IMG/VR virus record: IMGVR_UViG_3300025727_000008
Span: 1 to 64,000 of that record
Source: a virus
Length of the DNA stretch: 64,000 nt
Reading direction: 5' to 3' (one strand)
Shown here: positions 6,917 to 56,383 of the stretch, in pieces
Numbering within the stretch: the stretch's first letter is position 1
How the letters are laid out: the number at the start of each line of letters is the position of its first letter
Notes under the pieces: generated by a model
The model's input: the letters and a program-made list of their open reading frames with translations, nothing else
The model's database searches: none
What the model was told of the DNA's origin: nothing
Position numbers and translations under genes: made by a program

Positions 6917-8452
6917 TTAATGCATTAAAGCCCATTTACCTTTATATTGTGCATTGGATAATGTTCTTGCTGATGCTGTGAATGCTACTTCTATTGCTCC
7001 TTTATCTTCAGGGAATGGGATATCAACAGTACTGAGTATAAAATCTGTTAATGTTAATGTAATAAATTCTTCTGTTTCTTTTGTAAAGTTCACAACAATA
7101 TTACCTGTTGATTCGTTATCCTTTCTCAACTCATCCCATAATGTTGTATCTGTAATTAGTGCCGTCATTGAAACTTCATATGTTCTTTGTGCAGGTATAT
7201 GTTCATTCATAACTTGCCTACTTGTATTTCCAATATATCTTTGAGGGGTTATGTTATTATTAATAGTAATAGAACCTGATTTAATCCTTGCATATGTTTG
7301 ACTGAATACTTCTAAAGCACCGTCTGAAAACATAAATGGATAATTATCAGAATCAGTAACACTAAAGTTTTTCAAACCACTAGGAGTTAGAACTCCATTG
7401 TGAGGAATGTAATTATTAGCGGTATCAGTAACAACATCATATGCCCTTCTAGTAACTAAATCTAAACTTGTTTTTAACTCCATACCTTCTTCAAAATTAA
7501 GAGTCAATGTATTAACTTGGCATCCTGTAAAGATACGAGAAAATATGTTTTCATGTGGGGTCAGATTATCAACGGCAGTGGTTGCAGCCACACCTGCTTT
7601 TCTATAAGATACATCTAACCCAAAAGACGGTAAAGATGCTCCATTGGATTCATCAAAGGTATAGGTTAAAACACTAGTAGTTCCCATTTCATGATAATTG
7701 GCTAAATCACTAATACTAGTAGCAGGTGTAGTATCAGTAGTATTTGTTGAAAGAGGCGGGTATTCAGCACCACCCGCAATTGGAACTCTAACTAAACCTT
7801 GTGAAACATCATTAGCAATGAACTTATTATTAGTCGATGAAGTCCAATCAACAGCATTATTGGTAATTCCTAATCCTGTTACTTTTCCTAAAGCATAATA
7901 CAACCAAGAACCATTATTTAATGATAAATCTAAAGAGCCACCACTAACAGTTTCAGCACCTCTAAATTGTAAAGCAAGATTTCTAGTATTTCCACCCATT
8001 AAAGCCAGTTGTGTAACTGGTGCATCAACGCTTGGTGGAGAAAAGGAATTAACTAACCCTAACCAATTATCAGATAATAGTTTTTGGTTAGTAGTTGAAG
8101 GTGCAATAACAGGCGCACCGAATGATAATAATTTAACATCTACATTTTCTGTACCGATTGCTTCCATATCAGAAACATTTGAATCAAAAGTAAAACTATT
8201 TTCAGTATTTGATGTAACCGTTACATAGTAAACTACTGCGGGAGTAGCAGAATCAGTAACTTTCGCTCTGCATCCAACATATAAATCAGTCAAAAACTTA
8301 AACTTATCACTATCGGCAGTAGCCAAAACTGCAATATTTAAATCGGTATTTCCAGCAGCCCAAGTAACTACCATACTATCAAAATACATATCCATTTCCG
8401 GCACTAATGTAGCCATTGTCCCTGCGCCTACAAATACTTCATTACTTACCAT
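6917..8452 (-). CDS. major tail tube protein
   Basis: 511 residues, beta-rich, Thr/Asn/Ser-rich and low in Lys, as expected for an abundant structural subunit. It lies between the tail-completion gene and the frameshifted chaperone, the standard place for a siphovirus tube protein. The length is well above simple tube proteins (about 150-250 residues), suggesting extra surface domains. The C-terminal part (TYEVSMTALITD, TLTLTDFILSTVDIPFP) resembles the tube beta-sandwich; this is a pattern impression. The ribosome site GGGTGATTAAAA precedes the ATG. Confidence 0.75.
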   Translation of the reverse strand: MVSNEVFVGAGTMATLVPEMDMYFDSMVVTWAAGNTDLNIAVLATADSDKFKFLTDLYVGCRAKVTDSATPAVVYYVTVTSNTENSFTFDSNVSDMEAIGTENVDVKLLSFGAPVIAPSTTNQKLLSDNWLGLVNSFSPPSVDAPVTQLALMGGNTRNLALQFRGAETVSGGSLDLSLNNGSWLYYALGKVTGLGITNNAVDWTSSTNNKFIANDVSQGLVRVPIAGGAEYPPLSTNTTDTTPATSISDLANYHEMGTTSVLTYTFDESNGASLPSFGLDVSYRKAGVAATTAVDNLTPHENIFSRIFTGCQVNTLTLNFEEGMELKTSLDLVTRRAYDVVTDTANNYIPHNGVLTPSGLKNFSVTDSDNYPFMFSDGALEVFSQTYARIKSGSITINNNITPQRYIGNTSRQVMNEHIPAQRTYEVSMTALITDTTLWDELRKDNESTGNIVVNFTKETEEFITLTLTDFILSTVDIPFPEDKGAIEVAFTASARTLSNAQYKGKWALMH

Positions 8453-9181: not shown

Positions 9182-10258
9182 TCACGAAATAAAATGTATT
9201 ATATTCTTTTTCCCATTAATAATATCATTTGCTTCTTCTAATAAAATATCATGTTTAGTTTTTAAATCTATATTAGAACCTGTTTCTGCAATCAATATAG
9301 AATTATCATCATGTCGAATTACTTCTGCCGCAACTAATTTAGTAGTCGCCTCATGTATTCCGGCTGGAACTCTACCATCACCTGCAACATATGTAACTCT
9401 AATAGAATGATTTTGAACATATGGGAATTGTTTATGGAAAAATATCTTTCCTTCATGGTTTATCATCCAATAATCACCCATTCTATTTTGGTCTTGGTTG
9501 TCGGTAAATCCTGTAACCGTACCGAAATTAGAAGTAAGATTACATGCCGAACCATCTTCTCCTAACAGTAGTGAAGATATTATTACATTACCACCATTTT
9601 CTGAATCAACCGTAGCATAAAAGAAATCTGAAATATTTACATTAGAATTACCATTAGCAGTAACAGATTTAGCAGCAACTTCACCTGTAAATTTTGCTGT
9701 CTTATGTGGGAAAACTTCATTGATTGCATCTACTATTTGACTAGCAGTTGTCTTAGTACCAAAATTATCATAAAAATGTGTACTCTCTACTAAATTAAAA
9801 GTATAGGTTCCGACAGTTAATGATATAGTCCAAGCACTAGTTGTTACTGTTGTAGGCAAGGTTAGTTTAGCAGTAGCAGATGCTAAATCTTTATATTCGC
9901 TACCTTGCCAAACTTCTAATCTAACTAACTTTTGAATTCTTGGTTGTGATAATTGGACAAACCCAACATAATCTTTCCATATAGATACAGGATATGCACC
10001 TTGATTCCAACCATCAAAAGAAAAATATTCATCTCTATGTATAATAGGTCTGTATGATTGTCCGATTTTATCGTCTACTTTCTCTTCTGCTCTCTTAATT
10101 AATTTACCTAATTCGGCTCTTGTAGGAGTAGTGGTATCACTAAATGCACTAATTTGTAATAAATTAGAAACGTCAGTGTGAGTAGTATAATGTCCAAAAC
10201 CAATATTATAATTTACATCAATATTTGTGAAATCACTAGGAGAGGAAACTTTTACCAT
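9182..10258 (-). CDS. head-tail connector (adaptor) protein
   Basis: 358 residues. The N-terminal helical part (AFSDTTTPTRAELGKLIKRAEEKVDDKIG) and the C-terminal RVTYVAGDGRVPAGIHEATTKLVAAEVI match the pattern of HK97 gp6-type adaptor proteins, which have a helical bundle ending in a YxAG...VP..I..A segment. Between them, about residues 130-250, is a beta-rich Thr/Asn insertion that makes the protein about three times the usual adaptor length and may be a surface domain. It lies upstream of the tail genes as expected. Confidence 0.65.
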   Translation of the reverse strand: MVKVSSPSDFTNIDVNYNIGFGHYTTHTDVSNLLQISAFSDTTTPTRAELGKLIKRAEEKVDDKIGQSYRPIIHRDEYFSFDGWNQGAYPVSIWKDYVGFVQLSQPRIQKLVRLEVWQGSEYKDLASATAKLTLPTTVTTSAWTISLTVGTYTFNLVESTHFYDNFGTKTTASQIVDAINEVFPHKTAKFTGEVAAKSVTANGNSNVNISDFFYATVDSENGGNVIISSLLLGEDGSACNLTSNFGTVTGFTDNQDQNRMGDYWMINHEGKIFFHKQFPYVQNHSIRVTYVAGDGRVPAGIHEATTKLVAAEVIRHDDNSILIAETGSNIDLKTKHDILLEEANDIINGKKNIIHFIS

Positions 10259-10268
10259 AGTATTACAC

Positions 10269-13200
10269 CTACTTACTCCTTGCGAGTAACTTGCTATACT
10301 TATTACTTGCCCTTAGAAATATATCGTTATTTACACTTCTTTGTTGCGCCCTTTCTCTTCTATGTCTTCCTTTTATTTCAGGATTAGGTTCTCGCCTATT
10401 ATTATTTCTATATCCAGTATCAATAAATTGACCGGCTATTTTAAAATCTAATGTCCTAATAGATTCCCATGTACTTCCCTTTTCTAATACTACTGGTATA
10501 TATTCTATCTCTCCTAAATGTCCAGTAAATACTTCTCTCCAATGTTCTTCTGTTTGTTTTATGTTATCCTTACCAGTGAATATAAAGTCAATATAAAAAT
10601 TATAAAACTCAGTAATTATATTTTCTTTTTCACTTGCTATATTAGTATCGCTATTTAAACCTAATAAAGCATATATTGTAAGCCCTTGAAAATCCTTCTT
10701 ATTATCAGTTATCAAGGTAAAATGTCTTGTTATTTTAGCGAAACTTTCAAATATTTTTATTATTTCTTTTCTATCTTCTGGTTTTATCCAAAATAAATGT
10801 TCATATAATTCTATTTCATCTAACATATGTTTAGTAGAAGGCACTTCAGAATTCCTGCTACCTCCCCACAATTCTCCTGCTTGAAATGTACCTGAAGAAT
10901 TAATTGGTACTATAGCATCTATTTTTCTTTGCGTATCTCCTTCATCTCCTGCTTTTATTATTGATTTAAATGTATATTTATTTACATTGTAAGTTTTTCT
11001 AAATGAAACTTTCGTATTTTCTTCGTCAGGAAATTTATATTCCGGCATACTAAGTGCTTGGTCTTTTTTATCCCATTTACTATCTTTTTTATCCTTATTT
11101 TTATATGCATCAGTTATACCATCTATTAAATGTTGCATTTCTTCTTCATTTAAATCCTTTAAATGCATGAAGTCCGTTTGTCCTACATTCCATGCTGTAG
11201 GATTAAATAATTTCTCATAATAATATTGTAAACCGTGGTCATACCAAGCAGGAAATTTTTGTTCTTGTGTACCTAATTTGTACTCTTTCTTAAACCATTT
11301 ATATTCATCTGTCTTTTCAAATTCATTGAATAATTTTTTATTTTCTTTATTACTATATTCCACTTTAATGTCTTTTAACATTGATTTAAAAGCATCATGT
11401 TTCTCTTTATTATTTTTAATATTTATTACATATTGTTTGCCATCATTTTTAAATTCTACTTTATCTTTATCTACTTCATCTTGATTAAAGAACCATTGCA
11501 AATATGGCTTAGATTTATCATCCATAAATAATTTATATGAAGGATAATCATGCTCATAATCTCGGTCTGTATGAATAGTTTCTTTTAAATTATATCCAAA
11601 TATAGAACTCAAATCACGAACCTTATTCCTGCTTAAATATTCCTCTTTCCAGTCAGGATTGTCTGCCATATACTCTTCTGTTGGTGTCCATTTACCATCC
11701 TTTATATCCTCATATGTTGGTGGATAATTCAATGCTTCCAATATATTCTGATACTTTTCATATGCCTTATATAATTTTAAACTACCTACCTCTCCGTCTT
11801 TAAGTATTCGTTGAATATTTATATGCTGTTCAATCTTACCTATTTCTATATCTAAATTACTTAAATCATCAATTAGTAGTTTAAATGCCAAATTTATGGA
11901 AGCAGTTTGACTTTTACTTTCTTTTTGCCAACTATTAGCACTACCACTTGATACAGTTCCTTTAATAAAACTATAAATTAATTCTCTTATTGTTTCGTTA
12001 TCAGGTCGTTTGAAGGGTTCAAATTTTTTATTATTATATTGATAATAAGAATTACCATCAAATATTGTAGTTAAATCTCTTTCAGTATCTATCAGTATAT
12101 CCATTATCTTTCTTACCCTGCCAACATTAGAGTATAATTTTTCTTGTTGTTTTTCATTAAAAATATCTTTTTCTTCACTTCTAGAAACTGTAGTGCCTCG
12201 TTTTAAATAATCCTTAAACGTTCCAATATCCTTTAATGCTTTAACAATCTCAGTATCAATTTTAAAATTTAAAACCATATCTCCTAAATCTAAGTTACCA
12301 TCTTGGGGAGTTATCCTTAACAATATATCTTTTTTAATATCAGATAAACCCCTTTTAGGTTTAATTTCTCCATCCATTATATCTATAATAGTTTCTTTTA
12401 GAGTTTCTTTATCATTAAATCCCTTAATTTCATCATTAATCTTTTTAAATAATTGCACGTCAGATAAGTTTTTACTAGTAGTATTAGTCAATACAGAATA
12501 TAGGTTATATGTATTGTCCTCTTTAAACCGACGTTTGATTTCATCTAATCTTTCTCTATTTATTATTGCCACATCTACTGCAAGGTTCTCCATATTTTTA
12601 TCATTCATATAATCTATATGACCATCTACTTTGGTGTTAATATTAGCCCGTATTTGTTTATCATTTACAAGAACTTTAATTCCCTCTTCATATTCATTTT
12701 TGTCTTTAACTATATTTCTTTGTATTAATAATAATGATGACCTATCCGATATGCCAGTAAGTTGGGGTTCTATTTTAGTTGATTCTTTTTCTTCCTTAAT
12801 AATATTAATAGTTTTAACAATAGATTTTAATAATTGTTTTTCCATTGGTTCTTCATCTTCTTCTATCTTAGTTGATGCTTGTGATTGTTTATATGCCCTA
12901 AATATCTTTTTAAATAATCGTCTTATATCAGTAGGTAGTAACTTGTTATCGTTAAAAAATGTTTTGAATTTATTTTCTACTTTAGTTCCATGTATTTTTT
13001 CAGGTGTTAAACTTTCATCATAATTATCTAATATTCCATTTATTGTTTTAATCTCTACATCGTTAAATTTCCAATCTTTTTTAAATTTATCAAACTCTTT
13101 CATTTCTTTTGTTTTTTCCAACCATTCATATAGATTTTTATTACCATTATATAAATCAGTAATTATATCAAAAATTTCATTTACTTGTATTTCTTTTAAA

Positions 13201-14003
13201 AATGTATCTTTTTCTACAAAATTATAAGGAAAACCCGACTCATCCCAATCACCAAATGGTTTATCAAATACATTTTTAATATAATCTAATATTTTTATTG
13301 TAATAGTTATCTTTTCTTTTTTAATATCTACATATAAATGATTTTCTAATATTTTAGTATTTAAAATAGGTTTTGATGTTTGGATTTTATTCTCAATTTC
13401 CTTTACTACTGTACTTTTATAATCTATTGTAGATTCTCGTATTTCCTTTTCTTCGTTTTTTGTATCTGCTACTGCATCTTTATCACTACTAGTAGATAAT
13501 TCCGTTTCTTCTAATATCTCTTTAAGATTTCCTTTATCAAGCCCTTCTGCTACAGTTTTTTTTCCAATGCGTTTTATTATTCGCGTAGTAAGAATATCAT
13601 CTTCTATATATCCTTCATTATGTAATAATTGTATAATCCCTAATAAAGTAGAGTTTGATAATTTATCCACTACTATTATTTTTAAACAATTTTCAAGTTC
13701 TGTTAAATTTGTTTTAGAAGTTTTACGGTTAGGATATTCTGCTCTTAAATCTTCCAGTTGAACATTTAACAACAGTTGAATTTTATCTTCACTTTGTTCC
13801 ATTTTAGATGTTATGTCTAAAAAACTATCCGAAAAAATATAAGCAGCGTAATCTAAAAAAAGGTTGGGTACATTATCATTAGAAACTATTATGTTATCAT
13901 CTTTTGTTGTATGATTAATTATTTCCCAACCATTAACTATTTCTTCTGTTAATGTAATTGAAGTAGGTAAAGTAGGTATAATTCTCTCAGTAATTTTTAC
14001 CAT
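10269..14003 (-). CDS. 1244-residue charged helical protein, unknown
   Basis: The largest complete gene here. It is dominated by Lys, Glu, Asp, Asn and Ile in long helical stretches, with no Cys-rich module, signal peptide or membrane segment. The last 200 residues are more globular and end in a basic Arg-rich tail (NNNRREPNPEIKGRHRRER). It sits between the Gln-rich protein and the head-tail adaptor, so a virion role is likely. Unlike the three other giant proteins at 24.8-37.1 kb it lacks the N-terminal tryptophan tag. It could be a minor head or ejection protein; no function is claimed. Confidence 0.7.
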   Translation of the reverse strand: MVKITERIIPTLPTSITLTEEIVNGWEIINHTTKDDNIIVSNDNVPNLFLDYAAYIFSDSFLDITSKMEQSEDKIQLLLNVQLEDLRAEYPNRKTSKTNLTELENCLKIIVVDKLSNSTLLGIIQLLHNEGYIEDDILTTRIIKRIGKKTVAEGLDKGNLKEILEETELSTSSDKDAVADTKNEEKEIRESTIDYKSTVVKEIENKIQTSKPILNTKILENHLYVDIKKEKITITIKILDYIKNVFDKPFGDWDESGFPYNFVEKDTFLKEIQVNEIFDIITDLYNGNKNLYEWLEKTKEMKEFDKFKKDWKFNDVEIKTINGILDNYDESLTPEKIHGTKVENKFKTFFNDNKLLPTDIRRLFKKIFRAYKQSQASTKIEEDEEPMEKQLLKSIVKTINIIKEEKESTKIEPQLTGISDRSSLLLIQRNIVKDKNEYEEGIKVLVNDKQIRANINTKVDGHIDYMNDKNMENLAVDVAIINRERLDEIKRRFKEDNTYNLYSVLTNTTSKNLSDVQLFKKINDEIKGFNDKETLKETIIDIMDGEIKPKRGLSDIKKDILLRITPQDGNLDLGDMVLNFKIDTEIVKALKDIGTFKDYLKRGTTVSRSEEKDIFNEKQQEKLYSNVGRVRKIMDILIDTERDLTTIFDGNSYYQYNNKKFEPFKRPDNETIRELIYSFIKGTVSSGSANSWQKESKSQTASINLAFKLLIDDLSNLDIEIGKIEQHINIQRILKDGEVGSLKLYKAYEKYQNILEALNYPPTYEDIKDGKWTPTEEYMADNPDWKEEYLSRNKVRDLSSIFGYNLKETIHTDRDYEHDYPSYKLFMDDKSKPYLQWFFNQDEVDKDKVEFKNDGKQYVINIKNNKEKHDAFKSMLKDIKVEYSNKENKKLFNEFEKTDEYKWFKKEYKLGTQEQKFPAWYDHGLQYYYEKLFNPTAWNVGQTDFMHLKDLNEEEMQHLIDGITDAYKNKDKKDSKWDKKDQALSMPEYKFPDEENTKVSFRKTYNVNKYTFKSIIKAGDEGDTQRKIDAIVPINSSGTFQAGELWGGSRNSEVPSTKHMLDEIELYEHLFWIKPEDRKEIIKIFESFAKITRHFTLITDNKKDFQGLTIYALLGLNSDTNIASEKENIITEFYNFYIDFIFTGKDNIKQTEEHWREVFTGHLGEIEYIPVVLEKGSTWESIRTLDFKIAGQFIDTGYRNNNRREPNPEIKGRHRRERAQQRSVNNDIFLRASNKYSKLLARSK

Positions 14004-14016
14004 TCATTAAACCACC

Positions 14017-14751
14017 TTAAGCAAGCCATTTAGCCCAAGCAACTGCTTTGCCTAATCCTTGTGCTAGACCTAAACCGCTCTGTGGTGGGGTGTATGTTGG
14101 CTGACCGGTCTGAGGGTCAATCCAATAAGGATTATTCATACTATCATATCCTTGTGGGGGAATAGGATAACCACTGCCATTTTGTAATGCCATTTGTTGT
14201 TGGTTCATAGTATTATTAAAATTAGTACTCATGTTACCACCTTGTATTTGGCTAGGATTTAAGCCTTGAGGGTTCATACCTTGTTGCTGCATACCCATTT
14301 GTTGCCGCATATCCATTGGTGTTTGAGTTTGAGATTGGGGTTGTGATGGAGATGAGAACCCTTGTGCTTCAAGATATTGTTGTTTAGCCATCCTTCGTTG
14401 CATTACAACTTCACTATTAATAGCAGTAGCCAAAAGATTAGCCATATCTAAATCAATATTTTCTTGAGTAATCCTAGTAAATTCAGTAAGAGCATCTGGA
14501 GATATAACAAGATTACCACTAGAACTTTGATTAAATTCTAACTTAATTAACATTTGGCTAACTGCTCTTTGAACAGTATCTTCAATTAGTTTTTCCATTG
14601 CCTTTAAAAATGATTCACCGTGATATTGAAAGAAATCTTCAACATGATTTTCTTGTAAAGTTAAAAGGTTATTGATTGTTTTAAATTGGGTTTGCTGTTG
14701 CGCCCCCATTTGTGTTGATAAGTTACTATTACTCGTTCCAAATAACCCCAT
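14017..14751 (-). CDS. structural protein with Gln/Met-rich tail
   Basis: 244 residues. The first about 130 are helical (NNLLTLQENHVEDFFQYHGESF). From about 130 to 210 the sequence is low in complexity, dominated by Gln, Met, Asn, Pro and Ser (QQQMALQNGSG, MDMRQQMGMQQQG), ending in WIDPQTGQPTYTPPQSG and a short hydrophobic helix (AQGLGKAVAWAKWLA). The stop is one base from the next start. A disordered, sticky tail of this type is common in virion or assembly proteins. No family recognised. Confidence 0.6.
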   Translation of the reverse strand: MGLFGTSNSNLSTQMGAQQQTQFKTINNLLTLQENHVEDFFQYHGESFLKAMEKLIEDTVQRAVSQMLIKLEFNQSSSGNLVISPDALTEFTRITQENIDLDMANLLATAINSEVVMQRRMAKQQYLEAQGFSSPSQPQSQTQTPMDMRQQMGMQQQGMNPQGLNPSQIQGGNMSTNFNNTMNQQQMALQNGSGYPIPPQGYDSMNNPYWIDPQTGQPTYTPPQSGLGLAQGLGKAVAWAKWLA

Positions 14752-15422
14752 TACTCAACCACCTCTTCCGTAACAATTGCGACCTTAACGCCATCGGTTA
14801 ATAGAGTTTTGACTCGCTCATTAATACTGTTAGTTTCTATTACTAATCTAAATAATTCTTCTTCTTTAGATTCAATACCCATAGTAGGTGGTTTAATTGT
14901 CCAACCTAATGAAGATAATGATTGCATGTCTGTCTGTTTTAAACTAGTCAATGGGGCAGAAATTAAAGGGTTTAACATTTTAGCAGAAGGAATATATGCA
15001 CTAAAAGAAAGACCATGTTCTTCTGCTAACATTTGTTGTTCTAACATTTCATATTGCTTATGGATTGTTGCGTGTTTATTACAATAAGTTCCCCTCATAG
15101 GATAGCCCCTTCTTACTTTATGTAATGGTAAAGGGGGGCGCATAGAATCTCCTGCTTCCCATATTTTTTGAGAGCCACATACAACACATCTATCTTTAAT
15201 ATTATATTTAAATTTATATGGGAATTTAAGAAATGTTTTTTTCTCAGGCATTAAAACTTTAATTATTTCCTTCAATTGTTTTTTGGGTTTTAAATTTTTA
15301 TATTCATATTGCATTACTGACCCTGCTGCTCTCGCAGTACTAAAAGTATCTAAATATGGGTTTGAAGTAATATGTGCTGATTGTGCGCCTATTAAATTTG
15401 GGGGGTTGAAATTCATTGCCAT
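14751..15422 (-). CDS. zinc-binding protein of the GTPase cluster, unknown
   Basis: 223 residues from the ATG at 15422 (MAMNFNPPNLIGAQ); an earlier ATG at 15437 overlaps the GTPase stop (TAATG) and is also possible. The middle holds CVVC about 65 residues in, then a Cys and His about 40 residues on (TYCNKHATIHK), consistent with one zinc site. It lies immediately downstream of the small GTPase and upstream of the Gln-rich protein, overlapping both neighbours by a base, so it may belong to the same functional cassette. Partner or effector of the GTPase is speculative. Confidence 0.55.
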   Translation of the reverse strand: MAMNFNPPNLIGAQSAHITSNPYLDTFSTARAAGSVMQYEYKNLKPKKQLKEIIKVLMPEKKTFLKFPYKFKYNIKDRCVVCGSQKIWEAGDSMRPPLPLHKVRRGYPMRGTYCNKHATIHKQYEMLEQQMLAEEHGLSFSAYIPSAKMLNPLISAPLTSLKQTDMQSLSSLGWTIKPPTMGIESKEEELFRLVIETNSINERVKTLLTDGVKVAIVTEEVVE

Positions 15423-15436
15423 GTGATATTCTCCCA

Positions 15437-16105
15437 TTAGTAATCCTTTATCATTGTTAGGATTCCCCTATATACCATTTCTGAATCTGATTTAGCACTT
15501 ACTATGTATTTATAACAAGGTATTCCTTTATCATTTAACTTTTGCATACCATTTCTAAATGAGTCAAATATTGGATGTTTTTCAATAGATGTATAGTCAT
15601 ATTTATCTTTCCATAAATCATGTTTATTAGCCCATAATCCAACTGCAACAGGGTAATCATGTATTTTCTTTTTTTGTTTTTTTCCTTTGTGGTTCCAATA
15701 AGGAGTACAAATTGTATCAACTAAAAAAGTCCAACATAATTGTTGTTCTATATCATAATGTTTATCCATATGTCTATCATCAATCATAAAAATAATATAT
15801 TTTACTTTTCTAGTTTTCATGTCTTGAACCCATTCATTCCAAAATACTGTTTCACCACCAACATCAGCAGTTTTAATGGTATGAGCATCACCATCTAATT
15901 TTACAAATTTTCTAGATGGTCGTTGTAATCCAACAGTTCTATCTGTAATAGCAGGGATTTCACCTCTAGTTCTTAATTGATGATGTAGAGTAGTTTTACC
16001 TACTTTACTTGCACCATATACTCCAAAAGGAATTGAATGTAATCTTTGATAGATTCTATTCATTCCTTCTACAAATAAAATAGCGAAACCCGCCATCACC
16101 GACAT
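15437..16105 (-). CDS. Ras/Arf-like small GTPase
   Basis: 222 residues with a full set of GTPase motifs in order: P-loop GASKVGKT (31-38), switch I Thr near 57, Walker B / G3 DVGG (81-84), G4 NKHD (160-163) and G5 SAK (203-205). G4 specifies guanine. The DVGGE form resembles Arf-like and related small GTPases. Residue 85 is Glu where Ras has the catalytic Gln, so intrinsic hydrolysis may be slow. A Lys-rich insert (GKKQKKKIHD, about 141-150) precedes G4. The N-terminus has a short hydrophobic stretch (VMAGFAILFVEG). Small membrane proteins lie directly upstream. A small GTPase inside a viral structural block is unusual; membrane or assembly control is inferred. Confidence 0.85.
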   Translation of the reverse strand: MSVMAGFAILFVEGMNRIYQRLHSIPFGVYGASKVGKTTLHHQLRTRGEIPAITDRTVGLQRPSRKFVKLDGDAHTIKTADVGGETVFWNEWVQDMKTRKVKYIIFMIDDRHMDKHYDIEQQLCWTFLVDTICTPYWNHKGKKQKKKIHDYPVAVGLWANKHDLWKDKYDYTSIEKHPIFDSFRNGMQKLNDKGIPCYKYIVSAKSDSEMVYRGILTMIKDY

Positions 16106-16111
16106 TATTAA

Positions 16112-16336
16112 TCACACCAAATGATGCCATAAATTAACAATCCCATTCCATGTAGAAGAATATAAATTATACCCAAATAAAGGTATTGCATGACCTATCA
16201 AAAAACCTATTACTGTTGAGATTATACCCCATAACCAAAACCTCGCTCTAAGAAACCAAATATCAGCAGAGTGCGCTCTTTGCAAATCATATGCTAATGT
16301 GGATTCATCGAACCCCATTAGTATCTCAGATACCAT
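16112..16336 (-). CDS. small single-pass membrane protein
   Basis: 74 residues. A charged amphipathic N-terminus is followed by one clear hydrophobic span (FWLWGIISTVIGFLIGHAIPLFG, split here by no gap) at about 33-55 and an aromatic C-terminus. The ATG follows AGTGATTAA. Only six bases separate it from the small GTPase gene, so it is a candidate membrane anchor or partner for that enzyme. It might instead be holin-like, but no lysis enzyme is nearby. Confidence 0.6.
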   Translation of the reverse strand: MVSEILMGFDESTLAYDLQRAHSADIWFLRARFWLWGIISTVIGFLIGHAIPLFGYNLYSSTWNGIVNLWHHLV

Positions 16337-16343
16337 TTAATCA

Positions 16344-16787
16344 CTACTCGTTAAATCCAGTTAAAAATGTAGGGTTTATTGTATTGCTATCAAATTGCGG
16401 TTGTTGGTTTTGTTGCATTGTAGGTAAGTTAGCATCTCCATACACCGGCTGACCGAAGGTTTGATTGAAACTTCTTAATGATTCTCTAACTCTCTTTCTA
16501 TTATCTTCATCCCTTGCTTTTCTATTCCAATAAGAATCTATTTTTCTTTGTAGCAGGAAATCTTCTATTACATCATTTAACATTAAATCAAATAGTGCTT
16601 TCAATAACATGATACCCCCTACTGTGCATATACCGAATAATACTGCATGGGAAAGTCCTGTGTATGGGAAATCCATACCATATAAAGTATAGAAATAAAT
16701 ATTTGTTCCACTAATTGCACCAACAAATAGTATAGTCATTACTAGTCTTGTATCTGTATCAATACTAGGCAAACACATCAACTCCAT
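16344..16787 (-). CDS. membrane protein with basic and Gln/Asn-rich tail
   Basis: 147 residues. Two hydrophobic spans lie near residues 15-35 (MTILFVGAISGTNIYFYTLYG) and 46-68 (LSHAVLFGICTVGGIMLLKAL), followed by a strongly charged helix (RKIDSYWNRKARDEDNRKRV) and a Gln/Asn/Pro-rich tail. A second start at 16778 sits closer to GGAG and is equally possible. With the neighbouring 74-residue protein it forms a membrane pair just upstream of the GTPase. Confidence 0.6.
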   Translation of the reverse strand: MELMCLPSIDTDTRLVMTILFVGAISGTNIYFYTLYGMDFPYTGLSHAVLFGICTVGGIMLLKALFDLMLNDVIEDFLLQRKIDSYWNRKARDEDNRKRVRESLRSFNQTFGQPVYGDANLPTMQQNQQPQFDSNTINPTFLTGFNE

Positions 16788-17053
16788 GTGCAGGAATATG
16801 AGCCACCTGAACCGGATAGTATTGCAGTTATACCTGTTCCCATTGCTCTGTCGTGCATATCAAATTCAATAGTATTATTAGCAGTAAGAATTAATCTAGC
16901 AACTTCATCTGCTGAACCAACAGTAGTGTTATTATGGTCATATAATTTTAATGTTGCAGTTCCAGTAGAACAAAAATGAATGCTGGTCATTTTACATCTA
17001 CCGTCATTCAATACTGCACTAGATGTTTTAACAGGACTACCTGCTGAAACCAT
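16778..17053 (-). CDS. small beta-rich protein, possible capsid decoration
   Basis: 91 residues from the ATG at 17053, which shares its A with the TGA of the upstream gene. The sequence is strand-rich (IHFCSTGTATLKLYDHN, VARLILTANNTIEFDM) with a Gly/Ser-rich C-terminus containing ILSGSGGSYSCTWS. Small beta proteins encoded right after the major capsid gene are often capsid decoration or head-stabilising proteins. No family is recognised; the call is from position and composition. Confidence 0.5.
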   Translation of the reverse strand: MVSAGSPVKTSSAVLNDGRCKMTSIHFCSTGTATLKLYDHNNTTVGSADEVARLILTANNTIEFDMHDRAMGTGITAILSGSGGSYSCTWS

Positions 17054-17466
17054 CACTTCACATCCTTAGTGGTTTTCTTCTTAGTAGTGGTTTTCTTAGC
17101 AACGGGTTTCTTTTCTTTTACTGTTTCTTTAGGGACAACAGTTTCAACCACTGCTTCAACCACTGCTTCAACCTGCTTTTTAACAGGAGTTTTTACTTTC
17201 TTAGGAAATAATATATCATTAACATCGCCTTCTACACCTAAATGTCGTCGTATTGCTTTAATTCTATTTTCAGGTAAATTAGCAATATCCTTTTTATCAT
17301 CAACTGTAAAGTCAACTTGGATTGCTTCATCTCCTAAATAAAGTGCTGCGATTCTAGCAGGTACTTCACAAGGGGTTTGTGCTGTAAGAGAATATATTTT
17401 TTCTCCAACCCCTCTAATTTCTAATGCGCCTTCAACTCTATGTGTTTTCAATCTTATTAATGCCAT
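17053..17466 (-). CDS. capsid-adjacent protein with Lys/Thr/Val-rich tail
   Basis: 137 residues from the ATG at 17466, preceded by GGTGATATT; an upstream ATG at 17541 would add 25 residues but has a weaker ribosome site. The N-terminal 90 residues are mixed alpha/beta (HRVEGALEIRGVGEKIYSL). The tail is a low-complexity Lys-Thr-Val run (VVEAVVETVV; TTTKKKTTKD), positively charged and probably disordered. Directly downstream of the major capsid gene. It may be a head completion or DNA-binding internal protein; no family recognised. Confidence 0.55.
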   Translation of the reverse strand: MALIRLKTHRVEGALEIRGVGEKIYSLTAQTPCEVPARIAALYLGDEAIQVDFTVDDKKDIANLPENRIKAIRRHLGVEGDVNDILFPKKVKTPVKKQVEAVVEAVVETVVPKETVKEKKPVAKKTTTKKKTTKDVK

Positions 17467-17557
17467 AATATCACCATTTTTTAAAGGGTAGTAACCCCTA
17501 CCCCGATGTTTCGGAGTAGAGGCTACTACTTTACATTTCACTTATTATTTAAGTATC

Positions 17558-18961
17558 TCAAGCACTCTTTAGGTTGGTAATCTTACCTTGACCCTTGAAG
17601 AAGGAACAGCATGTTTCGCCCATTGTGCGATACATACCTTGATTTCCAAGTTTACCAACACCGAATGGATTTCCACTAGTAATTCCATCCTCAAAATACT
17701 GAGTAGGCTTCATTACAGATAACCAAAGATGGTCTGTATCAAGAATTAACATATCACTTAACCTGTTGCTTGTTGATTGACCAGTTGACGGCATATCTTT
17801 AGCAGGGATAATTGGTATGTCGTAGTAGGTTGCCACACGGAAACCTACTTCTTGACCCTTTACTCCACGAACACCATTATGGGAAGGAACTATTTCTTTC
17901 CTATCCATAAATCGCTCTTGTGATTGTAGTAAATCAGAAAGTTTCTGTATGGTATCATATCCAGTAATGATAACTTTAGGATTACCACCGTTAGTGCGGA
18001 TTCTACGAATCATATCATTAAGTATGCTTAGAGTTAAAACTCTACAATTACCTGATGTATAATCAGTACCGAAGTCAACTTCTGCGTCTAGGAAAGATGC
18101 AACACCTGTGTAAGTGTAAGCACCTGTTCCGCCGCTAGTATCAACAGTAACAGTTCTAGTTGAACCAAAGATAGTAGTAGCATCAGCAAGTTGTGCTGCT
18201 GTACCATTATTTGTTTGGTTGTGATAGAATACGTCGTCATCAGCCATCTTTGCAAGTTCAGCAGCAGATGATATAATCTTCATTAGAGAAGTATAATTCT
18301 TCTCAATTCCAGTTGTACCGTTCTCTGAATACTTTTCAAGAGGCATAACTAACATCTTGCTTTGTACTTCAGCGTGTAACTTACCCATGTCTTCTCTAAC
18401 GATAGCGCGAATATCTCCGACACCATCATCAATTGCAGCCATTTCCATTCCTAGTTCTGAGAACTCAAATAGATGTGCAATAGTCTTAGGGCTAACATAT
18501 AGTTTAGTATATTCAGGAGCGATTGCTCTGAATCCATCTGCACCACCTAATGCTGCGTTTTCTCCAACACCACCAATTTGGTCTGCTCTAGGTGTTTCTG
18601 CCTGAGCAGAAGTCATTGCTGCTGTTACTGCATTAGTACCAGTTCCGAATGCTGCACTTGAACCACCAATAGGTCGGCTCTTTAGTACTCTCCAACCACT
18701 AGATGTGTAAGGTCGCTTTGCAAGCATTGCAAGAGGGTTAACTTCTTGGTTTAATACTGACCAAACTTTTTGTCCGTATAATAGGTTGTATAAATCTCCT
18801 AATCCTGCTGCACCGGTAAATGCATTAGCACTAGTATCGTGAGGTGTTCCAAATCCACCAACGACTCCACCTGCTTTAAGCAAAGCGTTGCCGCTACCAG
18901 TTCCACCATATCCGTATGTTGCTGCTTCTAAATCTTTCATTGTCTTAATATATCCACTCAT
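17558..18961 (-). CDS. major capsid protein, HK97 fold
   Basis: 467 residues, three bases after the protease-scaffold gene, the canonical order. The pattern (PLAMLAKRPYTSSGWRVLK early; VSPKTIAHLFEFSE; RREDMG-like REDMGKLHAEVQSKML; NPKVIITGYDTIQKL; C-terminal GMYRTMGETCCSFF) fits HK97-type capsid subunits with an E-loop, spine helix and P-domain. The GC content and Cys/Gly/Ala codons are visibly higher than in surrounding AT-rich genes, as expected for a highly expressed protein. No N-terminal delta domain is separate because the scaffold is fused to the protease upstream. Confidence 0.85.
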   Translation of the reverse strand: MSGYIKTMKDLEAATYGYGGTGSGNALLKAGGVVGGFGTPHDTSANAFTGAAGLGDLYNLLYGQKVWSVLNQEVNPLAMLAKRPYTSSGWRVLKSRPIGGSSAAFGTGTNAVTAAMTSAQAETPRADQIGGVGENAALGGADGFRAIAPEYTKLYVSPKTIAHLFEFSELGMEMAAIDDGVGDIRAIVREDMGKLHAEVQSKMLVMPLEKYSENGTTGIEKNYTSLMKIISSAAELAKMADDDVFYHNQTNNGTAAQLADATTIFGSTRTVTVDTSGGTGAYTYTGVASFLDAEVDFGTDYTSGNCRVLTLSILNDMIRRIRTNGGNPKVIITGYDTIQKLSDLLQSQERFMDRKEIVPSHNGVRGVKGQEVGFRVATYYDIPIIPAKDMPSTGQSTSNRLSDMLILDTDHLWLSVMKPTQYFEDGITSGNPFGVGKLGNQGMYRTMGETCCSFFKGQGKITNLKSA

Positions 18962-20174: not shown

Positions 20175-22760
20175 CTAATCGCTATTTTTATTAGGAAATT
20201 TTAAATTACTATATTTATCCTCATTAATATTCCATATATTAACATCATCTTCATCCTTTAACATTGATTGTTTCTTACCTGTCCAAGCAATCCATGTTTT
20301 CTTTTCATTTATTGGAACAACTCTTAGATGTAGTCTAGTTTCAAACTTATCTCCTTCTAATTTATATTCATGATAACCGTCTTTTTGAACACCTAATGTT
20401 ACTATCCCCTTATCTATAATTTTACCTTCATTTATATTAGTTGCAACAATAGCAGGATATTTATTAGATTTACCAAATAAATTATAAATATCATCAGTAT
20501 CTTCAATATCTATTAACCATGCTAATCTTTTATTTTTATAATTAATTACAAAATTAATATTACCATCTTCTTGAAGAGAAATATTAAATTTTCCTTGTTT
20601 AGAATCTTCCTTATAGATTATATTTTCATCCACATCTTTTTCTAAAATTTCTTCATTAGAAAAGAATTTATTAGGATGTTTGTAAATGAATGAATCTTGT
20701 TTTTTCATCCAAGACATTAATTTAGATTCTACTGATTTAAATAAACTTTGGAATAAATCAGGGTATTCTTTCTTTACAAATAAAACTATTTTTTCAAATT
20801 CTAATTCATCATTTCCGCTATTTAATATTTCATTTCTTATAGATATTCTTAACTCAGAACGCTTACTTTTTATTAATTGATTTAATTCTTCTTTCCACAA
20901 ATCAATATTATGTAAAGCGTTTTTCTCCATTAAATTATCTCCTTCAAATCCATATAAAGTATAGCCTTCTAAATTTTCTTTTAATATAATTTCAGCAGTT
21001 CCATGTATATCGTCTGTAATATAATATCCCTTTTTTAGTTTTTTAGGTTTTACTAAATCAGACTCTAAACCACTCATAACTCTAAATGGTTTAGGAACAA
21101 CTCCTGAAACTAAACCGCGTATAGCAGATAATGATTTTTTACTTTTAGATGCTAATTTTTCTAATGTTGCGATATTATCAGATTGAGTAACTTCAGGAAC
21201 TTCTATCACTTTAGCGGAATACAAACTAAAACCATTTTTATTTTTAGTAACTTCATCAACTTTAACTCTAACAATACTACCAACATCTACATTGATTTTA
21301 GTGTTTAAAGCCTTACCAACTTCTAAATAATCCTTCCCTTCAAATTCAACAGTTGCATAATTTCTAGCAACTTCTGCTGTAACTGCACCTATACCCATTG
21401 TATAAGAATGTAAATTGCTTTTAGTTTTTCTATCTTTTAGAACTATCACATCTAAGTCAACAAATTTTTTCCATTTAATCCATTTTGGATTTTTTCTATT
21501 TCCAATATAATAGGTAGATTCTATATCTTTAATAACTACTCCTTCAGAAGCAGGTAATTTCATAATATCTTTAGAATACTCTTCTACTTCTTTCTTAGAA
21601 TCTGCAATACGAGTATCTTTTTTAGAAGGAAATGCTAAATTTTCAGAAGAGTGTTGAGCATATTGATATAATAAAATATTAATTCTTTCTCTTAAAGGTT
21701 CTTCTGTTATTTCTTTTCCTTCATGTATCATAATATCAAAAACATGAGCCTTTAGTGTACCTTCAGTTTTTTTATGGAAAACATGAGTAATAGTGTCTGC
21801 TCGTTGTAATGGCTCATCATCTAAGAATAACATTAATTCTGCATCTAAGATACAATCACCAAACTGTTTCTTTTCCATATGTTTAACTTGTTCAGGGCAT
21901 TTTAAAGTAATATCTTTTTGATTAAAAGAATAAATTTTAACTTTATTATCAAACTTATGAATTTGTATTCTCATTCCATCATATTTTTCTTGAACTACAA
22001 ATTCACCTGTTAAACCTTTAATATCATCTAAATCATCTATTTCAAATATCCTATACATTGGTTTATTTGGTTGAATAAAATCTATTCCTGCTTTTGTTAT
22101 ATCTAATTCTAATAATGAATCCCATTGTTCTTCATTATATTTTTCTAAATATATTTTTTCTAATTGTTTAAATGCGTGTTTACATTTAGATTCTATTCTT
22201 CTAGTATCGTCATTTTCATCACCATAATGTTCAATAATATAAATAGGAACATCTTTAGGTTCTAAATCCAAACCCATATATCCTTGAGTAATATTATCAG
22301 GTTGTAAATTATGTGCATTCCAAGATTTATCAGGAATAGGATTAGTATGAGAACGCACTGCATAATGAATAAATGCTAATAACATAGATTCATTTTTCAT
22401 AAATTCTTTGATTACATCATCACCTAATTGTTTTGAAAATGGGTCGCTTACTTTATCAGATTTGAACCTAAGACTTTTAACACCTTCATAAATTTCTTTT
22501 GCTTGTCTAGATTCAGGGTCATATGCTTCTTCTGAAAAAACTATATCTTCTTTCAAATATTTTTTTAATTCTCTAGTAAAATCATCTAAAGAATCAAACT
22601 GATTTCTAACTTCCTTTACTGTTTTTCGCCACTTCTTGTTATAATCAGAAGGGTTTTCTTTAGCAGATAAATAAGAATATCTGACTCTTTCAAAAAAATC
22701 CAATACTCGTTTAGTTAAAGTATCTTTTTCCTTTTCAAAAATAACCCCTGTTTGCGGCAT
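20175..22760 (-). CDS. large ATP-dependent DNA ligase with N- and C-terminal extensions
   Basis: 861 residues. The core (about 240-510) shows nucleotidyltransferase motifs in order: I, KYDGMR with adenylated Lys near 259; III-like DAELML; IV, EGVVIKD; V, KWIKWKK; then an OB-type segment (AEVARNYATVEFEGKDYLEVG). The first 230 residues are helical and unfamiliar. The last 270 include a beta-rich part (GYHEYKLEGDKFETRLHLRVVP...TWIAWTG) that faintly resembles the LigD 3'-phosphoesterase fold. Seals nicked DNA. Its place beside the capsid genes, with a second ligase at 61.1 kb, suggests a distinct role such as genome end processing or packaging; that is inference. Confidence 0.85.
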   Translation of the reverse strand: MPQTGVIFEKEKDTLTKRVLDFFERVRYSYLSAKENPSDYNKKWRKTVKEVRNQFDSLDDFTRELKKYLKEDIVFSEEAYDPESRQAKEIYEGVKSLRFKSDKVSDPFSKQLGDDVIKEFMKNESMLLAFIHYAVRSHTNPIPDKSWNAHNLQPDNITQGYMGLDLEPKDVPIYIIEHYGDENDDTRRIESKCKHAFKQLEKIYLEKYNEEQWDSLLELDITKAGIDFIQPNKPMYRIFEIDDLDDIKGLTGEFVVQEKYDGMRIQIHKFDNKVKIYSFNQKDITLKCPEQVKHMEKKQFGDCILDAELMLFLDDEPLQRADTITHVFHKKTEGTLKAHVFDIMIHEGKEITEEPLRERINILLYQYAQHSSENLAFPSKKDTRIADSKKEVEEYSKDIMKLPASEGVVIKDIESTYYIGNRKNPKWIKWKKFVDLDVIVLKDRKTKSNLHSYTMGIGAVTAEVARNYATVEFEGKDYLEVGKALNTKINVDVGSIVRVKVDEVTKNKNGFSLYSAKVIEVPEVTQSDNIATLEKLASKSKKSLSAIRGLVSGVVPKPFRVMSGLESDLVKPKKLKKGYYITDDIHGTAEIILKENLEGYTLYGFEGDNLMEKNALHNIDLWKEELNQLIKSKRSELRISIRNEILNSGNDELEFEKIVLFVKKEYPDLFQSLFKSVESKLMSWMKKQDSFIYKHPNKFFSNEEILEKDVDENIIYKEDSKQGKFNISLQEDGNINFVINYKNKRLAWLIDIEDTDDIYNLFGKSNKYPAIVATNINEGKIIDKGIVTLGVQKDGYHEYKLEGDKFETRLHLRVVPINEKKTWIAWTGKKQSMLKDEDDVNIWNINEDKYSNLKFPNKNSD

Positions 22761-51641: not shown

Positions 51642-51792
51642 ATCTGTAAATATTAAGTATATCTTACTATAGACTATAGTGTCTATCGGTAATTACTATA
51701 GGTCTAGTCTGACTGTTAGTAATCCCAATAACGGGAGTTGTTATCTAATGGGTGTGAAGCCCATTAAATCTTATTTAAAGGAGAAAAAAAAA
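51642..51792 (+). promoter_or_regulatory. structured 5' leader of the ribonucleotide reductase
   Basis: About 150 bases with four stems in a row: TAGAC/GTCTA (51670/51681), TTACTA/TAGTAA (51693/51717), ATAAC/GTTAT (51728/51740) and a perfect TAATGGG/CCCATTA hairpin (51746/51760, loop TGTGAAG), then AAAGGAG before the ATG. It could be a regulatory leader. I see no B12-box, so it is not a recognisable cobalamin riboswitch. Confidence 0.45.
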
Positions 51793-53715
51793 ATGAATAA
51801 AGAAACTGAATTTGCATCAAAAATAACACACTTTACTAAATACGCTAAACATAAACCCGAATATAATAGAAGAGAAACATGGGAAGAAACTTGTATTAGA
51901 AATCTAATAATGCATCAAAATAAAATAACCACCGAATACACAAATATTAACACTCAAAATTTACTTTTACATAAACTATATGATGTTTATGATAATTATG
52001 TAATTCCAAAACTAATACTACCATCAATGCGCTCTATGCAATTCTCAGGGAGAGCAATAGAACGCTCACCAAATAGAATATACAATTGTGCTTACTTACC
52101 AATAGATAATATTTTATCTTTTTCAGAAACAATGTACCTTCTATTAGGTGGAACAGGTGTAGGTTATTCTGTTCAGCAACATCACATTGAACAATTACCG
52201 ATAATTAAAAAGGCAACATATCCTATGAAGTATATTATTCAAGATACCATTATAGGTTATGCTGATGCAGTAAAGGTTTTAGTTGAATCTAATACAGGAA
52301 TAATAGACTATAACCCTGTTTTTGATTTAAGTGAGATTAGACCTGAAGGAACTTTGTTAAAAACTACTGGTGGTAAATCTCCTGACCCAATGATTCTAAA
52401 AAGATGTTTAGAGAATATTTCTAATGTTTTTAATAGCAAACAAAATGGAGATAAATTAACCCCTTTAGAATCACATGATATTCTTTGTTATATTGCAGAT
52501 GCAGTATTAGCAGGTGGTATTAGGCGTTCAGCAATGATTGCTTTATTTAGTTATGATGATAATGAAATGATTGACTGTAAAAGTGGTGAATGGTGGACTT
52601 TTAATGAACAAAGAGGTATGGCGAATAATTCTGCTGTATTAGATAGGAATGAAGTTACCCAAAGTGATTTTAAGGTTCTATGGAATAAAGTTCAAAATAA
52701 TGGTAGCGGAGAACCTGCATTCTATTTCACTAACGATACAGAATGGGGAACAAATCCCTGCGTAGAAATAAGTTTAAAACCATATAGTTTCTGTAATCTT
52801 TGTGAAGTAAATGTTGCTAATGTTAAAGACCAATTAGATTTAGAAAATAGAATAGATGCGGCTACATTTTTAGGAACTTTACAAGCAACATATACAGATT
52901 TTCATTATTTACGACCTATATGGAAACAAACAACTGAAGAAGATGCATTAATTGGAATATCTATGACGGGTATTGCTAATAATAGAATTAAAGGATTAAA
53001 TTTAATTAACGCTAGTGATTTAGTTAAAGAAAAAAATCAGTATTACTCACAATTAATGAAAATTAATCAAGCGGCAAGAACAACTTGCGTTAAACCTGCT
53101 GGAACAACTAGCCTAATATTAGGCACAAGTAGTGGTATTCATGCATGGCATTCTAAATACTATATTAGAAGAATGAGAATAGGTAAAAAAGAACCTATTT
53201 ATAATTATTTATTAGAGAATATTCCTAAATTAATAGAGTGTGAGATTAAACACAATAAAACTACGGGAGAATCTTATTCTTCAGAACATTCTGCTGTGTT
53301 ATCATTACCTCAAAAAGCACCCTATAAAAATAGCATTGTAAGAGATGATGAATCAGCGTTAGATTTACTTAACCGTATTAAATATATTTCAACTAATTGG
53401 GTAAAGAATGGACATAACAATGGTATTAACACAAATAATGTATCTGCTACTGTTAGTGTGAAACCTAATGAATGGAAAGAAGTTGGTGAATGGATGTGGG
53501 ATAACAGAATTTTATACAATGGTATAGCATTATTACCGTATGATGGTGGTAATTATACACAAGCACCATTTGAAACTATTGATAAGAATAAATTTGAGGA
53601 AATGGTTAATATTATAGAAGATTCTAATTTTAATCTACAAGATATTGTAGAAATAGATGATAATACTAATCTACAATCCGAAATTGCTTGTGCTGGTGGA
53701 ACTTGTGAAATTTAA
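51793..53715 (+). CDS. class II (adenosylcobalamin) ribonucleotide reductase
   Basis: 640 residues from the ATG at 51793 (MNKETEFASK), after AAAGGAG; a longer in-frame start at 51679 would translate the structured leader. Active-site elements: YNCAYLPID (N-terminal redox Cys), the radical Cys in FCNLCEVN (about 332), AGTTSLILGTSSGIH, and the C-terminal redox tail CAGGTCEI. The layout, with GGTGVGYSVQ early, matches monomeric B12-dependent reductases. Makes deoxyribonucleotides for viral replication. No thioredoxin or activase gene is seen, so the host must supply cobalamin and reductant. Confidence 0.88.
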   Translation: MNKETEFASKITHFTKYAKHKPEYNRRETWEETCIRNLIMHQNKITTEYTNINTQNLLLHKLYDVYDNYVIPKLILPSMRSMQFSGRAIERSPNRIYNCAYLPIDNILSFSETMYLLLGGTGVGYSVQQHHIEQLPIIKKATYPMKYIIQDTIIGYADAVKVLVESNTGIIDYNPVFDLSEIRPEGTLLKTTGGKSPDPMILKRCLENISNVFNSKQNGDKLTPLESHDILCYIADAVLAGGIRRSAMIALFSYDDNEMIDCKSGEWWTFNEQRGMANNSAVLDRNEVTQSDFKVLWNKVQNNGSGEPAFYFTNDTEWGTNPCVEISLKPYSFCNLCEVNVANVKDQLDLENRIDAATFLGTLQATYTDFHYLRPIWKQTTEEDALIGISMTGIANNRIKGLNLINASDLVKEKNQYYSQLMKINQAARTTCVKPAGTTSLILGTSSGIHAWHSKYYIRRMRIGKKEPIYNYLLENIPKLIECEIKHNKTTGESYSSEHSAVLSLPQKAPYKNSIVRDDESALDLLNRIKYISTNWVKNGHNNGINTNNVSATVSVKPNEWKEVGEWMWDNRILYNGIALLPYDGGNYTQAPFETIDKNKFEEMVNIIEDSNFNLQDIVEIDDNTNLQSEIACAGGTCEI

Positions 53716-54037
53716 TTTAAAAAATTATCCAATACTGTCCCATACAGAAAAAAATAACTTTTTACTTATTGAAGAAGATATAATAGATATTATAGAAAAT
53801 ACAGAGGGTAAATATATTATTAGAAGTAATTTCAATGCAAGAAAAAAGGGTGAATTATCCCATACTAAATTAATTAAAAATATTGTATATTATGTAATAT
53901 ATGGATATACAATAATAAATACTATAGATGAATTAGAGAATTATATCTACTATTCAATAGATGTTAAAATAAATAATAAAAAAAATAAATGGAGAAATAA
54001 ATATGAAAATAAAAATAGCAATACCAACTGTCGGTGA
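53705..54037 (+). CDS. small basic protein, unknown
   Basis: 110 residues from a GTG at 53705 (MKFNLKNYPILSHTE), placed inside the reductase end after GGTGGAACTT. Very rich in Ile, Asn, Lys and Tyr; the C-terminus is a basic Asn-rich tail that overlaps the next gene by 35 bases. Gene overlap on both sides and a good ribosome site support it. No family recognised. Confidence 0.5.
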   Translation: MKFNLKNYPILSHTEKNNFLLIEEDIIDIIENTEGKYIIRSNFNARKKGELSHTKLIKNIVYYVIYGYTIINTIDELENYIYYSIDVKINNKKNKWRNKYENKNSNTNCR

Positions 54038-56381: not shown

Positions 56382-56383
56382 AA

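What the first reader, a model, noticed from the sequence alone, without database searches (positions are those of the whole stretch)
15437..16105. Ras/Arf-like small GTPase inside the capsid-tail block
GASKVGKT, DVGG, NKHD and SAK occur in correct order and spacing in a 222-residue protein. Small GTPases of this type are widespread in archaea and eukaryotes, but I know of no structural-block copy in tailed viruses. It lies between membrane proteins and tail genes; possible roles are membrane remodelling at entry or exit, or gating of head-tail assembly.
Basis: partly seen in the sequence, partly recalled or inferred. Interest (0 to 1): 0.87.

Follow-up and report, generated by a model that had tools for sequence, protein, structure and literature searches.

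The report
Arf-like GTPase cassette in marine archaeal viruses
A family of abundant tailed viruses, probably infecting marine archaea, carries among its head genes a complete Arf-type molecular switch of the sort cells use to shape membranes, together with two membrane proteins and two other partners that are always inherited as one five-gene block, suggesting a GTP-driven membrane step in the infection cycle of a tailed virus.

Summary
It encodes a 222-residue small GTPase with G1-G5 in order. All five motifs are practically invariant in 215 distinct relatives. At least 390 IMG/VR contigs carry it. An AlphaFold2 model (pLDDT 89) matches Arf/Arl GTPases best (ARF6, Z 18.9, 2.3 A over 161 residues), with an added N-terminal helix and a lysine-rich hairpin. 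Sequence alone does not reach Pfam's Arf cut-off. It is the most conserved gene of the block (median identity 74%, dN/dS 0.13; capsid protein 69%, 0.19).

It belongs to a precise five-gene insertion between the capsid/decoration genes and the connector genes: a two-TM protein, a one-TM protein, the GTPase, a zinc-finger protein and a helical protein. Among 231 non-redundant loci spanning capsid gene to connector gene, 193 have all five, 38 have none and none has a part. On the capsid tree this is one change. Related haloarchaeal viruses and a marine sister clade lack it, so general head-tail gating is unlikely. I favour a membrane-recruited Arf-type switch for a late membrane step (egress, or assembly on the membrane). 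GTP binding and function are untested. No tailed-phage counterpart was found in the collections searched.

The parts
15437..16105 (-). Arf-like small GTPase, 222 aa (residue 1 at 16105)
16040..16102 (-). N-terminal hydrophobic/amphipathic helix, residues 2-22, outside the Arf-aligned core
   Evidence: AF2 helix 2-22; conserved M-S-[VLI]-[ML]-[AT]-G-F start, hydrophobic moment 0.21 versus 0.14 shuffled
15989..16015 (-). G1 P-loop GASKVGKTT (residues 31-39)
   Evidence: G31, G36-T39 invariant in 215/215
15929..15940 (-). G2/switch I RT[V]G (residues 56-59)
   Evidence: R56, T57, G59 invariant
15851..15865 (-). G3/switch II D-x-G-G-[E/Q] (residues 81-85), with invariant W92 at D+11
   Evidence: E 159, Q 56 of 215 at residue 85
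15665..15700 (-). lysine-rich beta-hairpin insert (residues 136-147), K146 invariant
15617..15628 (-). G4 NKxD (residues 160-163)
15491..15499 (-). G5 SAK (residues 203-205)
16112..16336 (-). cassette gene 2: 74-aa single-TM protein with invariant RAHSAD motif before the TM
16344..16787 (-). cassette gene 1: 147-aa membrane protein, probably two TM segments with a charged C-terminal tail
   Evidence: second TM read from sequence, only one passes the hydropathy cut-off
14751..15437 (-). cassette gene 4: 228-aa protein with invariant C84-x2-C87...C119-x2-H122 (putative zinc finger)
14017..14751 (-). cassette gene 5: 244-aa protein, conserved N-terminal half, Q-rich linker, conserved C-terminal tail
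   Evidence: weak non-significant I-BAR hit
17558..18961 (-). HK97-fold major capsid protein, upstream boundary gene
   Evidence: PHROG major head protein 2e-24; Druskaviridae MCP homolog
16778..17056 (-). small beta-type protein, putative decoration protein (flank, not cassette)
17053..17541 (-). 162-aa protein next to the capsid gene (flank, not cassette)
10269..14003 (-). 1244-aa fast-evolving protein downstream of the cassette; the sister clade has a 788-1027-aa gene at this place
9182..10258 (-). head-tail connector-type protein, homolog of HVTV-2 gp126; downstream boundary gene
   Evidence: E 6e-18
6917..8452 (-). tail tube protein, homolog of HVTV-2 gp129
   Evidence: E 1e-20; PHROG minor tail protein

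Best explanation
The gene encodes an Arf-type small GTPase that is the switch of a five-gene, virus-specific membrane module in one clade of magrovirus-like tailed viruses (predicted hosts: Poseidoniales). Proposed mechanism: made late with the head proteins, the GTP form exposes its N-terminal helix and, with the lysine-rich hairpin, docks on the cytoplasmic membrane next to the two small membrane proteins. The helical and zinc-finger proteins act as effector and regulator. Hydrolysis (Glu/Gln at the catalytic place) releases it. The cycle drives or times a membrane step of the late infection, most likely remodelling or opening the envelope for exit, possibly anchoring heads at the membrane. 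Shown: gene, family, Arf-like fold (predicted), all-or-none five-gene module, single change on the capsid tree, strong purifying selection. Inferred: GTP cycling, membrane binding, partner roles, late timing, exit. The GTPase identity alone I hold at about 0.95; the stated confidence is for the membrane-switch mechanism.
For: G1-G5 practically invariant in 215 relatives. AF2 model pLDDT 89 matches Arf/Arl first, Z 18.9. Invariant DxGG and a Trp at D+11 resemble Arf's DVGGQ and W78 (Arf numbering from general knowledge). Helix 2-22 lies outside the Arf core and is hydrophobic and mildly amphipathic. Two adjacent conserved membrane proteins. All five cassette genes in 193 loci, none in 38, partial in 0; one change on the MCP tree; 45 of 45 MCP-baited loci with enough sequence carry all five. 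Lowest dN/dS of 11 genes tested. Precedent in Euryarchaeota: the small GTPase ArvA drives vesicle formation with partners ArvB and the zinc-ribbon ArvC, and has an N-terminal amphipathic helix (PMC10927574).
Against: No experiment; GTP binding, membrane binding and virion content are unknown. Sequence profiles for Arf stay below the curated cut-off (18.9 versus 22.3 bits in one virus, no match in four other virus records). Ser2 instead of Gly2, so no Arf-type myristoylation site. The helix does not pass a TM threshold and its hydrophobic moment is modest. The membrane link rests mostly on gene neighbourhood. Viruses of the sister clade and Druskaviridae manage without it, so it serves a clade-specific need that I cannot name. 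Such strong conservation is unusual for lysis or exit genes.
Confidence: 0.45

Rival explanations
1. Membrane-tethered head morphogenesis: the GTPase module anchors or times procapsid initiation, connector assembly or packaging at the cell membrane in this clade (as membrane chaperones do for some phages), rather than exit.
For: The cassette sits inside the head gene run, between capsid/decoration genes and the connector gene, same strand and tight spacing; it is as faithfully kept as the capsid gene (193 of 193 in the clade) and under stronger constraint.
Against: The sister clade and Druskaviridae build homologous heads, connectors and tails without it. No sequence link to known assembly chaperones was found.
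Confidence: 0.25
2. Host takeover: the GTPase mimics or competes with a host small-GTPase pathway (vesiculation of the ArvA kind, secretion or division) and redirects host membrane traffic during infection.
For: Arf-like fold; euryarchaeal ArvA GTPases control vesicle release and have a zinc-ribbon partner gene (PMC10927574); strong conservation could reflect a conserved host partner.
Against: No homology of the cassette partners to ArvB (PF09846 in the own record) or ArvC (PF09845 missed the zinc-finger gene). No close cellular homolog turned up in 84,980 genomes except two contigs that look misbinned. Host-directed genes usually vary more than capsid genes.
Confidence: 0.15
3. Entry: the module proteins are packaged and help genome delivery across the archaeal membrane.
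For: Position in the structural block; membrane proteins alongside.
Against: A GTP-cycling cytosolic switch with a membrane helix is an odd virion component; nothing in the sequences suggests packaging; relatives enter without it.
Confidence: 0.08
4. The fold is a GTPase fossil: a structural or scaffolding protein that no longer cycles GTP.
For: Glu instead of Gln at the catalytic position in 159 of 215 members.
Against: All nucleotide-contact motifs G1-G5 are essentially invariant, which a dead fold would not need.
Confidence: 0.05

Closest known systems
Arf/Arl family GTPases (ARF6, ARL1, ARL3, Asgard ArfR)
   Same: Predicted fold (Z 17-19, about 2.3-2.7 A over about 160 residues), DxGG switch II with Trp at D+11, NKxD, extra N-terminal membrane-type helix
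   Different: About 16-23% identity; Arf Pfam cut-off not reached; Ser2 not Gly2; lysine-rich hairpin insert; SAK instead of Arf's CAT-type G5; mostly Glu at the catalytic Gln position; viral operon
ArvA/ArvB/ArvC (OapABC) vesiculation system of Euryarchaeota (PMC10927574)
   Same: Small GTPase with N-terminal amphipathic helix, MMR_HSR1-type Pfam similarity (one viral member scores exactly at the cut-off), small operon with a zinc-finger partner
   Different: Viral partners do not match OapB (PF09846) or OapC (PF09845); two membrane proteins are part of the viral module; homology of the GTPase to ArvA itself could not be tested (no ArvA sequence at hand)
Ras/Rab-family GTPases of giant viruses (Pithovirus, Klosneuvirus, Tupanvirus and others)
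   Same: Virus-encoded small GTPase fold
   Different: Scattered, eukaryote-derived-looking genes (inference) of nucleocytoviruses, 11-21% identity; not in a structural operon of a tailed virus
Magroviruses (order Magrovirales) and Druskaviridae (HVTV-2)
   Same: MCP, protease, connector and tail tube homologous; ligase next to protease as reported for group A magrovirus (PMC7318539); TFB, PolB
   Different: Druskaviridae and a marine sister clade lack the five-gene GTPase cassette; none of the magrovirus papers that I could open mentions a GTPase in the parts read or searched

Membership tests
Small GTPases (TRAFAC, Ras superfamily) | G1-G5 motifs in order and spacing | tested here: met
   practically invariant in 215 relatives
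Small GTPases (TRAFAC, Ras superfamily) | small-GTPase fold | tested here: met
   AF2 pLDDT 89; 1585 PDB matches at E <= 0.001, those shown all small GTPases
Small GTPases (TRAFAC, Ras superfamily) | profile similarity above curated cut-off | tested here: inconclusive
   TIGR00231 E 3e-6 but 27 of 42.5 bits; MMR_HSR1 21.9 bits, equal to the cut-off, in L053; window protein below all cut-offs
Small GTPases (TRAFAC, Ras superfamily) | GTP binding and hydrolysis | not testable with these tools
   needs purified protein
Arf family | closest structural neighbours are Arf/Arl | tested here: met
   VIA-align rows 1-44 all Arf/Arl/ArfR, Z 17.1-18.9; first other row is G-alpha at Z 17.1. Foldseek E-values rank Rab first, so the margin is small
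Arf family | Pfam Arf (PF00025) above cut-off | tested here: not met
   18.9 versus 22.3 bits in one virus record, no match in G000 and three others
Arf family | myristoylated Gly2 | tested here: not met
   Ser2 in the family
Arf family | N-terminal amphipathic helix | tested here: inconclusive
   helix 2-22 predicted; hydrophobic, moment 0.21 versus 0.14 shuffled
ArvABC vesiculation system | ArvB (DUF2073/OapB) next to the GTPase | tested here: not met
   PF09846 finds nothing in the own record while controls ring; Pfam scan of neighbours empty
ArvABC vesiculation system | ArvC (DUF2072/OapC zinc ribbon) near the GTPase | tested here: not met
   PF09845 does not match the zinc-finger gene in any of 6 virus records
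ArvABC vesiculation system | GTPase homologous to HVO_3014 | not tested
   sequence not available in the tools
SRP receptor beta subunit (SRPRB) | Pfam SRPRB above cut-off | tested here: not met
   21.1 versus 25 bits
P-loop kinases | kinase lid and nucleotide-kinase fold, no NKxD | tested here: not met
   NKxD and SAK invariant; no kinase among structural matches shown
Magrovirales | HK97 MCP related to Druskaviridae, own PolB, TFB, ATP-dependent ligase, low GC | tested here: met
   comparison with ICTV text; direct comparison with reference genomes not possible

The most novel reading that the evidence does not exclude
Tailed viruses of marine archaea run their own GTP-driven membrane-remodelling machine, a switch with dedicated membrane receptors, effector and regulator, acquired once and then kept by every member of the clade. 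It would be a virus-encoded analogue of Arf-type vesiculation, used for a non-lytic or controlled exit through the archaeal membrane.
Probability: 0.25. Interest if true: 0.93.

Novelty: new variant of a known kind. Interest (0 to 1): 0.75.

Why it matters
How tailed viruses leave archaeal cells is largely unknown. This gives a concrete, widespread (at least 390 viral contigs, mostly marine by their relatives) and testable candidate machine built around an Arf-like switch, a protein class mostly discussed for eukaryotic and Asgard membrane traffic and recently for euryarchaeal vesicles. A five-gene block with an all-or-none pattern and one change on the capsid tree also offers a natural experiment: sister viruses with the same head and tail genes, with and without the module.

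Tried and rejected
First AlphaFold run with 16 close sequences was useless (pLDDT 55); 83 diverse sequences solved it. BLAST of GTPase, zinc, helical and two-TM proteins against phages (and GTPase against plasmids) gave nothing. PHROGs, Pfam and NCBIfam gave no name for the partners. OapB/OapC models do not match the partners; the one weak OapC hit lies outside the window beside the PolB pieces and is probably a generic zinc ribbon. The I-BAR hit of the 244-aa protein (E 0.24) is not significant and is not used. Homology of the GTPase to any HVTV-2 gene in the syntenic stretch was rejected. ON649702, OR863078, PP497039 and PP497040 are not held, nor are two main magrovirus papers. A cellular phylogeny could not be built: no archaeal host genome could be reached as a centre. 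hhalign of GTPase against zinc protein: unrelated. Repeats around the cassette: no insertion scar found. Absence of decoration genes g92 and g162 in the sister clade by profile is not taken as real absence, as small beta proteins of that size are there; for the cassette, absence is shown by the tiled interval itself.

Full report
Observation. The reported 222-aa protein is encoded at 15437-16105 on the minus strand; the plus strand there is not coding. G1 GASKVGKT, G2 RTVG, G3 DVGG, G4 NKHD and G5 SAK occur in order. The combined pattern was found in 0 of 400,000 shuffles and in no other open frame of the window.

Virus. The record is a 78,572-bp IMG/VR virus. Its capsid protein is related to those of Druskaviridae haloviruses, it encodes TFB, two ATP-dependent DNA ligases and a portal and terminase, and PolB lies outside the window. 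Two opposed gene blocks at about 30% GC match the ICTV description of Magrovirales (PMC10768690). The ligase-protease adjacency matches that reported for a group A magrovirus (PMC7318539). Host Poseidoniales is therefore a prediction by relationship, not shown here.

Family. Searches of IMG/VR found 108, 281 and finally 390 contigs encoding relatives, 56-90% identical to the window protein in an 83-member set. In 215 distinct sequences the G motifs are essentially invariant; residue 85, the place of the catalytic Gln, is Glu in 159 and Gln in 56. The only hits in 84,980 cellular genomes were two contigs of one MAG labelled Maricaulis, most likely misbinned virus; that scan reaches close relatives only. 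PHROGs, phages and plasmids gave nothing.

What kind of GTPase. Pfam and NCBIfam report weak small-GTPase hits. With 83 sequences AlphaFold2 gave a confident model (pLDDT 89). Foldseek finds small GTPases throughout, Rab first by E-value. The VIA-align second look puts Arf/Arl/Asgard ArfR in the first 44 rows, best ARF6-GTP at Z 18.9, 2.3 A over 161 residues; the next row is a G-alpha at Z 17.1. Outside the Arf core are helix 2-22 and a lysine-rich hairpin at 136-147. Among viral predicted structures, the named rows of the top 50 are giant-virus proteins. I call it Arf-like in fold, not a member of the Arf family, because the Pfam Arf cut-off and Gly2 are not met.

Neighbourhood and module. 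In nearly all relatives the order is MCP, two small decoration-type genes, a 147-aa and a 74-aa membrane protein, the GTPase, a 228-aa zinc-finger protein, a 244-aa helical protein, then a large variable gene and the connector gene, on one strand with gaps of a few bases. Against HVTV-2, MCP, protease, connector and tail tube are homologous but the five genes have no counterpart.

All or none. Baiting with MCP instead of the GTPase, 45 of 45 loci with enough downstream sequence carry all five genes. A second bait starting from the halovirus MCP reached Druskaviridae, other relatives and a marine sister clade. Of 231 non-redundant loci spanning MCP to connector, 193 have all five genes, 38 none and 0 a part; in the sister-clade loci examined the interval is completely tiled by three small genes and the large gene, leaving no room for a cassette. 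No family member was found elsewhere in the sister-clade records examined (positive control). On the MCP tree the cassette needs a single change (support 89, quick method). The tree does not by itself separate gain from loss; with Druskaviridae as outgroup one gain is the simplest reading.

Constraint. On 96 loci holding all genes, the GTPase has the highest median identity (73.9%; MCP 69.0%) and the lowest dN/dS (0.129) of eleven genes.

Mechanism. The fold, the N-terminal helix, the lysine-rich insert and two co-inherited membrane proteins point to a membrane-recruited switch. The zinc-finger and helical proteins are the natural candidates for regulator and effector. A precedent is ArvA of Haloferax, a small GTPase that drives vesicle formation, with a zinc-ribbon partner suggested to be its GAP (PMC10927574), though the partner genes are not homologous. 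Because viruses with the same head, connector and tail genes lack the cassette, a general role in head-tail joining is unlikely; a clade-specific late membrane step is preferred. The step itself (exit, membrane-based assembly, host takeover) is inference.

Novelty. I found no report of this GTPase in the magrovirus papers held, and the only paper combining 'Caudoviricetes' and 'small GTPase' is about haloarchaeal plasmids. Two main magrovirus papers could not be read, so an earlier annotation as 'GTPase' cannot be excluded.

Noticed in passing
20175-22760 (-) and 61036-62580 (+): Two ATP-dependent DNA ligase genes in one virus; the first (861 aa, ligase core only at 251-431) sits in the head gene run beside the protease.
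   Followed up: partly
10269-14003 (-): 1244-aa charged protein with almost no detectable homologs among close relatives, although relatives have a large gene there; extremely fast evolving.
   Followed up: partly
14017-14751 (-): Profile of the 244-aa cassette protein hits the I-BAR domain of BAIAP2L2 at E 0.24 over 114 residues: not significant, but worth a structure prediction beside an Arf-like GTPase.
   Followed up: no
51679-55316 (+): Ribonucleotide reductase-like region with overlapping frames (51679-53715, 53657-54037, 54003-55316): possibly a split gene, intein or frameshift.
   Followed up: no
56351-57025 (+): ThiF/E1-like protein beside a TFB-like transcription factor (55313-56233).
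   Followed up: no
G000:C1:70218-71556 (outside the window): PolB matches fall into two pieces, with a small zinc-ribbon-like ORF (weak OapC hit) in the gap; agrees with the PolB-NTD/CTD labelling of Aoguangviridae.
   Followed up: no
L151, L152 (NZMJ01000101.1, NZMJ01000024.1): A GTDB MAG labelled Maricaulis sp. contains magrovirus-like contigs: probable contamination.
   Followed up: partly
L182 contig (184,733 bp): Two GTPase copies 92 kb apart: probably two virus genomes joined in one contig.
   Followed up: no
L532-L557, L559, L561-L563, L566, L567: Marine sister clade of magrovirus-like viruses without the cassette; it has short decoration-type genes and some members carry a chaperonin.
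   Followed up: partly
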